Shown in pieces: positions 10,837-14,262 of a stretch of DNA of 64,000 nt. The translations under genes were made by a program, and so were the position numbers. Every line of letters begins with the position of its first letter. Positions within the stretch are counted from its first letter, which is position 1. Source of the DNA: Lachnospiraceae bacterium 28-4 (GTDB lineage Bacteria > Bacillota > Clostridia > Lachnospirales > Lachnospiraceae); the NCBI GenBank assembly GCA_000403275.2, contig KE159598.1:1535722-1599721 (forward strand). Reading direction: 5' to 3'. The notes below the pieces were generated by a model. The model saw nothing but the letters and a program-made list of their open reading frames with translations. It made no database searches and was not told where the DNA came from.

Positions 10837-11154
10837 GCGGATGGCGCGGCATGACTGAGATTGGGCAGGGAAGGCGGACAAGAGGAGCGGCAGGGGCGGG
10901 CGTTTTTTGCTGTTGCGTACAATCAGGAATTTCATTTATGAAATGGTTCAAAATCCCAGGGGGAAATTGCCAAGGAGGGCAATTTCAGGAAACATAAGGC
11001 ATGGATGCCTTTTGTTTCCGCCCCGGCCCGTTTCCACAACAACCACCCATTTCATTAATGAAATCTGATTGGAAGCCCCAGCAAAAAACGCCCGCCCCCG
11101 CCGCTCCTCTTGCCCGCCTTCCCTGCCCAGTCTCAGTCATGCCGCGCCATCCGC
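10837..11154. repeat. Giant palindromic element, copy 1
   Basis: A 318-bp inverted repeat. Arms 10837-10912 and 11079-11154 are complementary at 73 of 76 positions without gaps. The helix continues inward through a conserved 7x7 internal loop (TTGCGTA opposite GAAGCCC), CAATCAG/CTGATTG, and an 18-bp ATTTCAT-type helix. The tip carries two small hairpins: AAATTGCC/GGCAATTT with a GGAG-containing loop, and GGAAACA/TGTTTCC enclosing AGGC-ATGGAT-GCCT. It starts 23 bp after the cadA stop codon. A second copy lies at 13882-14228 with the same core but different arms. No protein is encoded convincingly. It may be a structured RNA, a palindromic (MITE-like) element, or a large terminator. Confidence 0.85.
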
Positions 11155-11177
11155 TCCCCCCACAACTCCCTGCCTTC

Positions 11178-13049
11178 TCACTTCATAGCCCGCATAGCAT
11201 TCAAAATCGCAATCACCGCCACCCCTACGTCAGCAAATACGGCCGCCCACATGGACGCAGCTCCTAAAGCCGCCAACAACAATACCAGCACTTTCACTCC
11301 TATGGCAAAAACGATATTCTGCTTTACGATTCCAAGGGTCTTTTGGGAAATCTGCATCGCCTTCGCGATCTTAGACGGTTCGTCCGTCATAATTACCACG
11401 TCTGCCGCTTCTATCGCCGCGTCGGAACCGAGTCCCCCCATCGCCACGCCGATATCGGCCCTCGCCAGTACAGGAGCATCATTTATACCGTCACCCACGA
11501 AAACTAATTTTCCTTTTTCCGATTTCGATGCCAGCAGTTTTTCCACCTGCTCCACTTTATCTCCGGGGAGAAGTTCCGCATACACTTCCGTAATGCCCAG
11601 TTCCCCGGCTATGCTGTCCGCCGTTTTTTTCCGGTCTCCGGTCAGCATCACTATATTTTTCATGCCGGCAGCCTTGAAACCGTCCACCGCCGTTTTCGCA
11701 TCCTCTTTGATCTCGTCCGCGATCACAATGTAGCCCAGATATTTCTGTTCTTTTGCCACGTGGACGATAGTACCCGCTTCTTCCGGCGACTTTCCTTCCA
11801 CATTCCTGCTTTTCATCAATTTGTCGTTCCCCGCCAGAACGCGCTGTCCGTCCAAAACGGCGCAAATGCCGTGCCCTGCCGTCTCTTCCACATCTTTTAT
11901 CCGGGAATCGTCAATCTCTTTTCCATATGCCCTCACAAGGGACTTGGAAATGGGATGGTTGGAAAAGCTTTCCGCATATGCCGCCGTTTCCAATACTTCC
12001 TCTTCCGTGCTTCCCTCCGCCGGAACGATCTTCCTCACGCCGAACACTCCCTTAGTGAGAGTCCCTGTCTTATCCATAACGATCATTTCCGCATCCGCAA
12101 GAGCTTCCAGGTAATTGCTGCCTTTAATTAAAATACCCGCTCTGCTGGCTCCTCCCAGGCCGCCGAAAAAGCTTAACGGGATGCTGATCACCAGCGCACA
12201 TGGACAGGAAATAACAAGAAAACTCAACGCCCGGTATATCCAGTCCGCCCAGCCGCCTCCCGTGACCAAAGGAGGAACCAATGCCAGAAGCGCAGCAAGC
12301 CCTACCACCACCGGGGTATAATATCTGGCAAACTTGGTAATAAAATGCTCCGCTTCCGATTTTTTGCTTCCTGCGTTTTCCACCAAATCCAGTATTTTCG
12401 CCACTGTAGATTCTCCGAATCCCTTCGATACCTGAACCTCCAGTACGCCGGAAAGATTTACACAGCCGCTAATGACATCTTCGCCTTCCGCCACATCCCT
12501 TGGCAGACTTTCCCCGGTAAGAGCCATGGTATCCAGGGAAGAGGTTCCCTTGACCACTTTTCCGTCCAGCGGTATTCTTTCTCCGGGTTTGACCAGTATC
12601 GTCTCACCGATCTCCACTTCTTCCGGCCCTACCTCCACTGCGGTGCCGTCTCTGATCACATTGGCATAATCCGGCCGGATATCCATCAAGTCGGCGATGG
12701 ACTTCCTGGATCTGTTCACCGCATAAGACTGGAAACATTCCCCCACCTGGTAAAAAAGCATCACCGCTACGGCTTCCGCATATTCTCCTACAAAAAAAGC
12801 CCCTGCGGTAGCAATCGTCATAAGAAAATTTTCATCAAAAATCTGCCCTTGCCCGATATTTTTTACCGCTTTCTTCACCACATCTCCGCCTATAATGACA
12901 TAGGCTGCCAGAAATACGCCCAGAGACGCGCTTATGTTCCAGGAACCGAATTCCCAATAAGGCGCAAAGCGGGAAGATAATACTGCCGCCAAATATACCG
13001 CGGCTCCTGCGCCCACCCGTTTGATTCTTCTTTTTAACTTCTTACTCAT
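11178..13049 (-). CDS. cadA: CadA/ZntA-type heavy-metal-exporting P1B ATPase
   Basis: Exports Zn/Cd/Pb-type divalent metals. Actuator TGESLP, membrane motif SCPCALVISIPLSFFGG (typical of the Zn/Cd branch), DKTGTLTKG, SNHPISKSL and [20 protein letters not shown] are all visible. It is 623 residues and lacks the N-terminal HMA domain most relatives carry. That domain is encoded as a separate small protein immediately upstream, whose stop overlaps this start (13046-13049). Metal choice between Zn, Cd and Co cannot be settled from the sequence. Its stop codon is followed closely by giant palindrome copy 1. Confidence 0.93.
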   Translation of the reverse strand: MSKKLKRRIKRVGAGAAVYLAAVLSSRFAPYWEFGSWNISASLGVFLAAYVIIGGDVVKKAVKNIGQGQIFDENFLMTIATAGAFFVGEYAEAVAVMLFYQVGECFQSYAVNRSRKSIADLMDIRPDYANVIRDGTAVEVGPEEVEIGETILVKPGERIPLDGKVVKGTSSLDTMALTGESLPRDVAEGEDVISGCVNLSGVLEVQVSKGFGESTVAKILDLVENAGSKKSEAEHFITKFARYYTPVVVGLAALLALVPPLVTGGGWADWIYRALSFLVISCPCALVISIPLSFFGGLGGASRAGILIKGSNYLEALADAEMIVMDKTGTLTKGVFGVRKIVPAEGSTEEEVLETAAYAESFSNHPISKSLVRAYGKEIDDSRIKDVEETAGHGICAVLDGQRVLAGNDKLMKSRNVEGKSPEEAGTIVHVAKEQKYLGYIVIADEIKEDAKTAVDGFKAAGMKNIVMLTGDRKKTADSIAGELGITEVYAELLPGDKVEQVEKLLASKSEKGKLVFVGDGINDAPVLARADIGVAMGGLGSDAAIEAADVVIMTDEPSKIAKAMQISQKTLGIVKQNIVFAIGVKVLVLLLAALGAASMWAAVFADVGVAVIAILNAMRAMK

Positions 13050-13267
13050 TTTTCCACCACTTCCACATCCGGCTCATATTTTTTTACGACCTTCTTAATT
13101 TCCTTTGTAATTTTATCCGCCTTCGCGTCGTCCACTTCTATTGTCAGCTTCTGCGTCAGAAATGTCACCGTGCTTTTCGTCACGCCTTCCAGTTTTCCTA
13201 CCGCCGCTTCAATCTCCCCTGCGCAATGCGCGCAATCCAAGTCCTCCAGGATATAAGTTTTCTTCAT
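13046..13267 (-). CDS. Stand-alone HMA metal-binding protein
   Basis: 73-residue heavy-metal-associated domain with metal site LDCAHC, preceded by AAGGAGG and 8 bases before the chosen ATG at 13267 (the frame opens at 13291). It overlaps the ATPase start by 4 bp. It probably supplies, as a separate subunit, the N-terminal metal-binding domain missing from the ATPase: a metal donor or regulatory domain in trans. The DCxxC type without extra acidic ligands does not define the metal. Confidence 0.88.
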   Translation of the reverse strand: MKKTYILEDLDCAHCAGEIEAAVGKLEGVTKSTVTFLTQKLTIEVDDAKADKITKEIKKVVKKYEPDVEVVEK

Positions 13268-13299
13268 TTTCTTTTCCTCCTTCATTTTCATTTTTCTTT

Positions 13300-13671
13300 T
13301 TACTCATCTTCTTCAATGTGATCCAGTCCCTGTCTTAAAATCGTCTTAATATGACCATCTGCAAGGGAATAGAACACAGTCTTCCCCTCCCGCCTGTTAC
13401 GCACCAGATCCATTTGTTTCAACGTCCGAAGCTGATGGGAAATTGCCGACTGCGTCATGTTCAACGTCTGTGCCAGATCACAAACGCACATCTCACCGCA
13501 CATCAGCACATACAACATTTTAATCCTTGTAGAATCCGCAAATACCTTAAAAAAATCCGCCAGATCATAGAGCTTATCTTCCTCCGGCATCTGTTCATTC
13601 ACCTTTTTTACTGCATCTTCATGCACATGAATGTATTCGCATTTCTCTATCTGCTCTTCCTTACGCTTCAT
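13300..13671 (-). CDS. ArsR/SmtB-family metal-sensing repressor (CadC-like)
   Basis: Winged-helix repressor controlling the metal-efflux operon. The recognition region is CVCDLAQTLNMTQSAISHQLRTLKQMDLV. Cys residues in MCVCD plus an N-terminal Cys (KCEYIHVHED) suggest a CadC-like alpha3N site. ADGH with a His eleven residues later near the C terminus (HIKTILRQGLDH) matches the alpha5 zinc site. So it may respond to Cd/Pb as well as Zn. The start at 13671 has GGGAGG six bases upstream; the ATG at 13677 abuts that site. Located 32 bp upstream of the HMA gene, as first gene of the operon. Confidence 0.93.
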   Translation of the reverse strand: MKRKEEQIEKCEYIHVHEDAVKKVNEQMPEEDKLYDLADFFKVFADSTRIKMLYVLMCGEMCVCDLAQTLNMTQSAISHQLRTLKQMDLVRNRREGKTVFYSLADGHIKTILRQGLDHIEEDE

Positions 13672-13720
13672 AACCATCCTCCCTGTAAATATCTTCCCAC
13701 CCCTTCTCACTATTTATATA

Positions 13721-13769
13721 TGAACATCTGCTCATATGTTCATTATATCACTCTTCCCACAGATGTCAA
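13721..13769 (-). promoter_or_regulatory. cad operon promoter with ArsR-type operator
   Basis: On the minus strand TTGACA (13764-13769) and TATAAT (13742-13747), both perfect consensus, are 16 bp apart. An inverted repeat TGAACAT (13721-13727)/ATGTTCA (13736-13742) with 8-bp spacing overlaps the -10 and start region. This is the form and position expected for an ArsR/SmtB-family operator, so the encoded repressor likely controls its own operon. Confidence 0.85.
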
Positions 13770-13823
13770 CACGATTTTTTTCTTTTTCCACCGAAAACTT
13801 CCCCACTATATCTTTTTTCACAC

Positions 13824-13871
13824 ACAAAAAACAGGCATCAACAAATATCCCTACCCATGTCAACGCCTGTT
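13824..13871 (-). terminator. Candidate terminator downstream of giant palindrome copy 2
   Basis: On the minus strand a stem AACAGGC/GCCTGTT (13865-13871 with 13830-13836) is followed by a run of six T then GTGTG. Transcripts of the mcp gene would pass through palindrome copy 2 before reaching this site, so the palindrome would lie inside the mcp 3' untranslated region. Confidence 0.55.
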
Positions 13872-13881
13872 CTCCTATTCC

Positions 13882-14228
13882 CACGGAAATCAATTTTTAT
13901 AAGCGCCCTGACGGACGAAGCAAAACAGTGCCGGGGCTACCGGAAAGGGGACTGGCGGGGGATGGTTTTCTGCTGTTGCGTACAATCAGCCATTTCACTT
14001 ATGAAATGGTCAATAACCAGAGAAAATTGCCACGGAGGGCAATTTTAGGAAGCATAGGCATGGATGCCGTCGCTTCCGGCTCGTCCGGTTAGATACCATA
14101 ATCCATTTCATTAGTGAAATCTGATTGGAAGCTCCAGCAGAAAACCGTCCCCCGCCAGTCCCCTTTCCGGCAATCCTGACCTCGTTTTACCCCATCCCTC
14201 AGGGTGCTTATAAAAATTGATTTCCGTG
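13882..14228. repeat. Giant palindromic element, copy 2
   Basis: A 347-bp inverted repeat with 94-bp arms (13882-13975 and 14135-14228) paired without gaps. The outer 23 and inner about 36 positions are almost perfect, and a middle stretch of about 25 is poorly matched. The core is shared with copy 1: GCTGTTGCGTACAATCAG, the AAATTGCC hairpin, GCATGGATGCC and the CTGATTGGAAGC strand. Arms are mostly different from copy 1 but complementary to each other. Compensatory changes versus copy 1: GGAAAC/GTTTCC becomes GGAAGC/GCTTCC, ATTTCAT/ATGAAAT becomes ATTTCAC/GTGAAAT, and TTTTTTGCTG/CAGCAAAAAA becomes TTTTCTGCTG/CAGCAGAAAA. It begins 35 bp after the mcp stop codon, mirroring the position of copy 1. 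Confidence 0.85.
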
Positions 14229-14262
14229 CTTCATTCCTGTTTTTTACTCAGAATGTCCTTTT

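What the first reader, a model, noticed from the sequence alone, without database searches (positions are those of the whole stretch)
10837..14228. Two giant palindromic elements with a conserved core and covarying arms
Seen in sequence: two inverted repeats (10837-11154, 318 bp; 13882-14228, 347 bp) fold on exact symmetry axes with no gaps. Both share the inner motifs GCTGTTGCGTACAATCAG, an AAATTGCC/GGCAATTT hairpin with a GGAG loop, GCATGGATGCC and CTGATTGGAAGC. The outer arms (76 and 94 bp) hardly match between copies yet pair within each copy. That pattern is hard to explain by simple duplication; it implies selection for structure or repair of one arm from the other. I do not recognise a described family.
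Basis: partly seen in the sequence, partly recalled or inferred. Interest (0 to 1): 0.88.

Follow-up and report, generated by a model that had tools for sequence, protein, structure and literature searches.

The report
Mobile palindromes hiding a known RNA
Two long DNA palindromes between genes of a gut bacterium are copies of a small jumping element whose tip had been catalogued as an RNA of unknown function, and whose two long arms keep changing together, apparently by copying each other.

Summary
In detail: 10837-11154 and 13882-14228 are near-perfect palindromes with a shared core and unrelated arms. The family is not undescribed: both cores match Rfam RF01731 (TwoAYGGAY, 91 and 86 bits, cut-off 43), with 62 copies in this genome. 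RF01731 models only the tip. The whole unit looks like a non-autonomous transposable element: conserved ends (CACGGAAATCAATTTT), variable arms of about 100 bp, conserved hairpin core, 9-bp target-site duplication (identity 0.61 against 0.26 shuffled in 52 copies; 0.60 against 0.27 in 19 copies from other named genomes, mostly strain 526-35). The arms evolve in concert in place: at five sites shared with a sister species both arms changed alike at 117 columns against 35 others; the two best-supported sites alone give 45 against 15. At one of these the core lies inverted. Arm mismatches show no G.U excess over A.C (106 v 98). I favour arm-to-arm DNA templating or conversion over RNA selection. 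No mobilising transposase was found, and the core's job is unknown. 'Repair of one arm from the other' is supported; 'undescribed family' is not.

The parts
10837..11154 (+). element copy 1 (E28): palindrome; outermost conserved ends not recognisable
   Evidence: an element lies at the same place in sister species G004
10837..10912 (+). left arm of copy 1, pairs with 11079-11154 (73 of 76)
11079..11154 (+). right arm of copy 1
10913..11078 (+). core of copy 1 = Rfam RF01731 TwoAYGGAY match, 91.1 bits
10963..10986 (+). core hairpin 1, loop AAGGAG (not a strict AYGGAY)
10988..11019 (+). core hairpin 2, tip CATGGATG (strict AYGGAY)
13882..14228 (+). element copy 2 (E39): complete element with both conserved ends
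   Evidence: absent at the orthologous site of G004
13882..13897 (+). left terminal inverted repeat CACGGAAATCAATTTT
14213..14228 (-). right terminal inverted repeat (same sequence, reverse strand)
13873..13881 (.). candidate left target-site duplication TCCTATTCC (weak here: 5 of 9 match)
14229..14237 (.). candidate right target-site duplication CTTCATTCC; the G004 site has one CTTCCTTCC
13882..13975 (+). left arm of copy 2 (terminal repeat plus variable part)
14135..14228 (+). right arm of copy 2
13976..14134 (+). core of copy 2 = Rfam RF01731 TwoAYGGAY match, 85.7 bits
14023..14046 (+). core hairpin 1, loop ACGGAG (not a strict AYGGAY); the equivalent place in five other copies holds a 1.6-kb IS
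14048..14077 (+). core hairpin 2, tip CATGGATG (strict AYGGAY)

Best explanation
The two palindromes are copies of a MITE-like non-autonomous transposable element. Shown by comparison: conserved 16-bp ends, a 9-bp target duplication in copies that keep both ends, dozens of dispersed copies, patchy presence between related species, and a conserved two-hairpin core that matches the Rfam family TwoAYGGAY. Shown by comparison: the long arms between end and core vary freely in sequence and length, yet both arms have changed together since the split from a sister species, and at one shared site the core lies inverted. Inferred: the arms are kept identical by DNA templating between them (template switching on the hairpin during replication, or recombination/conversion between the inverted arms) and not by selection for an RNA stem. 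Inferred: a transposase acting on the ends moved the element. Not known: which transposase, and what the core does.
For: 62 copies over the Rfam cut-off in G000, 53 in sister G004; 25 of 57 end-pattern hits in G000 lie away from the 62, and some of those are further full copies. TSD: 52 of 115 copies keep both ends (<=4 mismatches); their flanking 9-mers match 0.611 against 0.264 for shuffled partners (max of 200: 0.342); 16 of 52 match at 8 or 9 of 9. In 526-35, IMSAGC_002 and S4_Bin4, 19 of 29 copies have both ends (<=5 mismatches), 0.596 against 0.269 (max of 500: 0.415), with three perfect 9-mers, all in 526-35. The end pattern gave 57 hits, its reversed control 0. G004 lacks the window's copy 2 at the orthologous site. 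Arms: median within-copy identity x coverage 90 against 54 to the best other copy (G000, n=60), 91 against 47 (G004, n=44). Concerted change at five shared sites: 117 columns where both arms differ alike between species, 35 other variable columns, and 139 gap columns shared by both arms, arm-end overhangs included. Core inverted at E56/F31 (score 237 inverted v 81), both flanks aligning. Arm mismatches G.U 106, A.C 98; mismatches cluster (287 close neighbours, random mean 181, max 203, 81 copies).
Against: No transposase with these ends at its own boundaries was found among the PF06782, PF00872 and PF01609 loci scanned. Flank identity at lengths 8 and 10 is also slightly above the shuffled maximum (0.315 v 0.308; 0.329 v 0.302), though far below the 9-mer. 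In one search the signal is strong in 526-35 (12 copies) but only 2 of 6 S4_Bin4 copies and 0 of 1 IMSAGC_002 copy reach 7 of 9. Window copy 2 has a 5-of-9 TSD, copy 1 no ends; 63 of 115 copies lack two recognisable ends. A core conserved better than the arms is not what a plain MITE needs. Of the five counted sites only E53/F25 has reciprocal-best cores; E56/F31 is second/second, E58/F26 third/fourth, E61/F50 and E28/F43 eighth or lower, and F50's nearest core is E44, the neighbour of E61; re-insertion or conversion from other copies is possible there. E15/F23 is also opposite in orientation (243 v 66), but only one junction aligns. If cores flip often, the G.U/A.C strand test loses power.
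Confidence: 0.78

Rival explanations
1. A structured RNA gene (for instance a CsrA-binding sponge, as proposed for TwoAYGGAY in PMC4333381) whose long stem is kept paired by compensatory selection on the transcript.
For: Rfam match. The GGA-containing loops were matched to the CsrA motif in PMC4333381 (passages read). Core pairs show G.U over A.C: B 36 v 14 (p 0.003), A 29 v 19 (p 0.19), pooled 65 v 33 (p 0.0016), though rows are related. Core against arms: Fisher p 0.02. G000 has csrA.
Against: Arms, the bulk of the palindrome, show no wobble bias (106 v 98) and carry gaps shared by both arms. Strands of the neighbouring genes relative to the element: -/+ 20, +/+ 18, -/- 15, +/- 8, one unresolved, of 62, crude ORF caller; not significantly uneven (chi-square p 0.14). 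csrA is in 11 of 14 genomes with the element and 17 of 27 without, one of the latter below the Pfam cut-off (Fisher p 0.48). 9-bp target duplication.
Confidence: 0.12
2. Each insertion is born as a perfect palindrome and only decays; differences between copies and species reflect independent insertions into preferred sites, with no correction in place.
For: Most same-site pairs are not nearest in core sequence, and one intergenic region holds an A-type element in G000 and a B-type in G004 (E13/F41).
Against: E53/F25 has reciprocal-best cores and homologous arm blocks, yet 19 concerted columns against 6 and a 16-column gap shared by both arms. At E56/F31 both flanks align and the arms are homologous, 26 against 9. 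Arms that split before speciation should differ within a copy at least as much as between species; at these two sites the reverse is seen.
Confidence: 0.17
3. The palindromes act as cruciform or bidirectional transcription terminators, and selection on the DNA or on both RNA strands keeps the arms paired.
For: Both window copies lie between genes, close after a gene's 3' end (24 and 35 bp); equal G.U and A.C mismatches are what selection on both strands would give.
Against: No significant orientation rule relative to neighbouring genes; absence in the sister species at the same junction; mobile signature. Terminator function was not tested, nor was it tested whether every copy is intergenic (masked the element).
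Confidence: 0.08

Closest known systems
TwoAYGGAY RNA motif (Rfam RF01731)
   Same: Both cores match over the full model, 91.1 and 85.7 bits against a cut-off of 43.
   Different: Rfam types it Cis-reg, 168 positions; here it is the inner part of a 300-350 bp element with arms, ends and target duplication. Only one of the two loops is a strict AYGGAY in most copies (53 of 62 have exactly one, 3 two, 6 none).
MITEs (miniature inverted-repeat transposable elements) of bacteria
   Same: Short, terminal inverted repeats, fixed-length target duplication, many dispersed copies, no conserved protein found in it.
   Different: Long arms with little sequence conservation outside the ends, and a core more conserved than the arms; no parent transposon found.
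Quasipalindrome correction by template switching (E. coli reporters, PMC7202029, abstract and passages read)
   Same: Imperfect inverted repeats become more perfect by copying one arm from the other.
   Different: Laboratory reporters there; here arms of about 100 bp at natural sites, inferred from sequence comparison only.
REP sequences as insertion-sequence targets (PMC1525189, abstract and outline read)
   Same: Dispersed palindromes that certain insertion sequences use as target.
   Different: REPs are 20-40 bp (PMC3733652, search listing); here the target is the first hairpin loop of the TwoAYGGAY core.

Membership tests
Rfam RF01731 TwoAYGGAY | covariance-model score above the curated gathering threshold over the whole model (Rfam's own criterion) | tested here: met
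   91.1 and 85.7 bits v 43, model 1-168
Rfam RF01731 TwoAYGGAY | two hairpins inside an enclosing stem | tested here: met
Rfam RF01731 TwoAYGGAY | strict AYGGAY in both loops (the name-giving motif) | tested here: not met
   window copies: loop 2 ATGGAT, loop 1 AAGGAG/ACGGAG; in G000 3 of 62 cores have two strict motifs. Filed by model score, not by this motif.
Rfam RF01731 TwoAYGGAY | is transcribed as an RNA | not testable with these tools
   no expression data
MITE / non-autonomous transposable element | conserved terminal inverted repeats | tested here: met
   both ends at <=4 mismatches in 52 of 115 copies; window copy 2 has both exactly, copy 1 neither
MITE / non-autonomous transposable element | fixed-length target-site duplication | tested here: met
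   9 bp as a family property; weak (5 of 9) for window copy 2
MITE / non-autonomous transposable element | empty site in a relative | tested here: met
   G004 lacks copy 2; one CTTCCTTCC at the junction, flank there diverged. One site only; E42 gave no clean empty site
MITE / non-autonomous transposable element | shares ends with an autonomous transposon | tested here: inconclusive
   not found among PF06782, PF00872 and PF01609 loci scanned; other transposase families not searched
REP / BIME / REPIN | palindrome of 20-40 bp | tested here: not met
   window units are 318 and 347 bp; tags and REP-associated transposase not searched
CsrA-binding sRNA | GGA in hairpin loops and dependence on csrA | tested here: inconclusive
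   loops hold GGA; csrA presence does not track the element; binding not testable here

The most novel reading that the evidence does not exclude
A transposable palindrome built from three parts that evolve under different rules: ends seen by a transposase, arms held only to mutual identity and rewritten in place by arm-to-arm copying, and a two-hairpin core carried with different ends in related species. The core would work as a folded RNA or single strand needed by the element, so that a known 'RNA family' is the engine of a hairpin-based mobile element.
Probability: 0.2. Interest if true: 0.82.

Novelty: new variant of a known kind. Interest (0 to 1): 0.6.

Why it matters
It turns an Rfam family described in 2010 and still without a function into the tip of a mobile element, and makes its annotation as a cis-regulatory RNA doubtful. 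It also offers a natural test of how inverted repeats correct themselves: many dispersed palindromes with a fixed tip, freely changing arms and same-site copies in sister species. It warns that 'covarying' stems can come from DNA templating, which comparative RNA discovery can read as RNA structure.

Tried and rejected
Autonomous partner: PF06782 copies in G000 (UPF0236, recalled as the ISLre2 family) also make 9-bp duplications, in 3 of 3 copies shown, but have other ends (GCTAGGGTAAAG...). PF00872 loci held only single 3-mismatch end matches (L287, L288, L297); the boundary comparison for G015 returned nothing. Among PF01609 loci, L308 has an end pair flanking the transposase; I read it as a palindrome with an IS nested in its loop, because the IS has its own ends and 8-bp duplication. 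Plasmids and phages: no blastn match; IMG/VR pattern scan 0. A second end (AATTTTATGTACAATT) was seen at 5 of 30 loci (G009, G015); flank identity peaked at length 6 (0.63, 5 rows, no control), too few to call. The empty-site search for E42 was not clean. MIR815 and ceN40 are below their gathering scores; treated as chance. First TSD scan without fixed ends: 9 of 62 repeats of 6-7 bp against 0.95 expected, superseded. The left-arm purine bias (103 of 105 copies) was first read as strand information; in a palindrome it holds for both strands, so it gives none.

Dropped rows: E62, F24, F45 and F51-F53 were left out of the core alignments (64 B and 45 A rows). Arm extension overran into flank for some copies (clear for E11 and F12); these stay in the pooled counts. 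E11/F12 (31 concerted against 68 other columns, overrun) was run but is not in the 117:35 sum; E22/F22, E26/F40, E52/F39, E13/F41 and E15/F23 were not given. E15/F23 was first counted as a second shared inversion and was downgraded because only one junction aligns. Of 22 further end-pattern places in G000, 20 were fetched. One search looked at 17 of 30 loci. In one search minus-strand G004 loci were read in the wrong orientation; corrected.

Papers: PMC2864571, PMC11701678, PMC11661157, PMC4333381 and PMC4383904, passages only; PMC7202029, abstract and passages; PMC1525189, abstract and outline; others search listing only. A search for TwoAYGGAY (7 papers, 5 listed, 4 of these looked into) and searches with MITE terms showed none that calls it a transposable element; PMC7657543 and the supplement of PMC2864571 were not read.
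Full report
OBSERVATION. Their left arms are not alike: 51/97, no more than shuffled sequence.

IDENTITY. cmscan against Rfam gives RF01731 TwoAYGGAY for both, over the whole model, 91.1 and 85.7 bits, cut-off 43. By the strict motif the fit is looser: each window core has one AYGGAY, and in G000 53 of 62 cores have exactly one. The literature held here says little: listed as probably an RNA and probably not cis-regulatory, in human gut, gamma-Proteobacteria and Clostridiales (PMC2864571, passage); proposed as CsrA-binding (PMC4333381, passages). Own genome: 62 copies. Sister species G004: 53. Of 41 genomes searched, 14 have a match; within the genus it is patchy, with none in G007, G008, G011 and G013 (stricter filters; G013 again none).

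ANATOMY. I cut out all 62 copies and aligned their arms. From outside in: an end (CACGGAAATCAATTTT, often followed by TATAAGCGCC), a variable arm, a short conserved stretch, then the RF01731 core. There are two core subfamilies (A, E01-E22; B, E23-E61) and one divergent copy (E62). Median aligned arm length is 102 (A) and 99.5 (B). Arms match their own partner far better than the best other copy: 90 against 54 (G000, n=60), 91 against 47 (G004, n=44).

MOBILE ELEMENT. Where both ends are recognisable (52 of 115 copies in G000 and G004), the 9 bases outside them repeat directly: mean identity 0.611 against 0.264 (max of 200 shuffles 0.342). Lengths 8 and 10 lie just above the shuffled maximum, the others tested (5-7, 11, 12) within it. 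In three other named genomes 19 of 29 copies have both ends, 0.596 against 0.269; the signal comes mainly from 526-35, with perfect pairs such as GATATTTAG and TTTTCCCGT, and from 2 of 6 S4_Bin4 copies. In the window, copy 2 has exact ends and a weak 5-of-9 repeat; at the orthologous place G004 has no element and a single CTTCCTTCC. Copy 1 has no recognisable ends; G004 has an element in the same place and orientation. The end pattern found 22 further places in the genome (25 hits); 20 were fetched, among them a full copy (L259), one with part deleted (L251) and one reduced to its ends (L256, 9-mers ATTTAATTG and ATTTAATTA).

ARMS. Five shared sites compared in four-way alignments (E53/F25, E56/F31, E58/F26, E61/F50, E28/F43): 117 columns changed alike in both arms, 35 other variable columns, 139 gap columns shared by both arms, overhangs included. 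The two best-supported sites, E53/F25 (reciprocal-best cores) and E56/F31 (second/second), give 45 against 15; the others have weaker core ties, and F50 is nearer to E44 than to E61. With independent arms my estimate is that concerted columns could hardly exceed a tenth of the others (inference, not computed in a call). At E56/F31 the core is inverted relative to both flanks; recombination between the arms would do that. E15/F23 is also opposite, but one flank does not adjoin. Mismatches within arms are G.U 106, A.C 98, other 50, of 5,957 cells 12-70 nt from the core, and they cluster. In the core G.U exceeds A.C, 65 to 33 (A alone not significant). So the arms behave like DNA that copies itself, and the core possibly like a strand that folds. 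Limits: rows are related; core flipping would blur the strand test; conversion from other copies or re-insertion probably happens too.

WHAT IT WORKS LIKE. A MITE, by ends, duplication, copy number and one empty site. Its mobiliser is not known: three transposase families were searched without a match of the ends to an IS boundary. Template switching at imperfect inverted repeats is an established route to arm identity (PMC7202029, abstract and passages); that it acts here is inference.

CORE. It is kept in species whose arms and apparent ends differ (G009, G015), which suggests it matters, for movement or otherwise. The CsrA idea is neither supported nor excluded.

Noticed in passing
G000 C1:190561, C1:1449213, C2:264305, C2:680066, C2:884122 (L308, L310, L311, L312, L313): A 1593-1594 bp insertion sequence (PF01609 transposase, 447-aa frame, ends GTAATGTCATTAAGTTAGG) sits inside the first hairpin loop of a TwoAYGGAY element in 5 of 7 copies, with an 8-bp duplication of the loop (CATGGATG, CACGGAGG, CCTCCATG); L309 and L314 lie elsewhere.
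   Followed up: partly
G000 (5 pairs), G004 (3), G012 (3), G023 (2); e.g. G000 C3:653045-/653430+: Copies within 500 bp of each other are arranged minus then plus, 5' sides facing, in 13 of 13 pairs in the listed matches (the list is cut). In G000 four of five pairs were compared: three are reciprocal nearest cores, one is rank 1/3; two of three G004 pairs were compared and are not nearest.
   Followed up: partly
arms of G000 and G004 copies, e.g. window 13882-13975: The 5' arm is more than half purine in 103 of 105 copies measured (mean 0.64). Reason unknown; it would limit pairing within one arm.
   Followed up: no
L147, L151, L152, L156, L163 (G009, G015): Related species carry the core with another apparent end, AATTTTATGTACAATT; many of the 17 copies looked at have shorter aligned arms (31-127 nt).
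   Followed up: partly
G004 contigs C29, C30, C81, C91, C2, C69: Several contigs of the draft G004 begin or end inside or next to an element, so copy counts in drafts are likely too low.
   Followed up: no
G000 C2:128811 (E11): By eye E11 looks like a recombinant: A-type core and inner arms with B-type outer arms, at a site where G004 has an A-type element.
   Followed up: no
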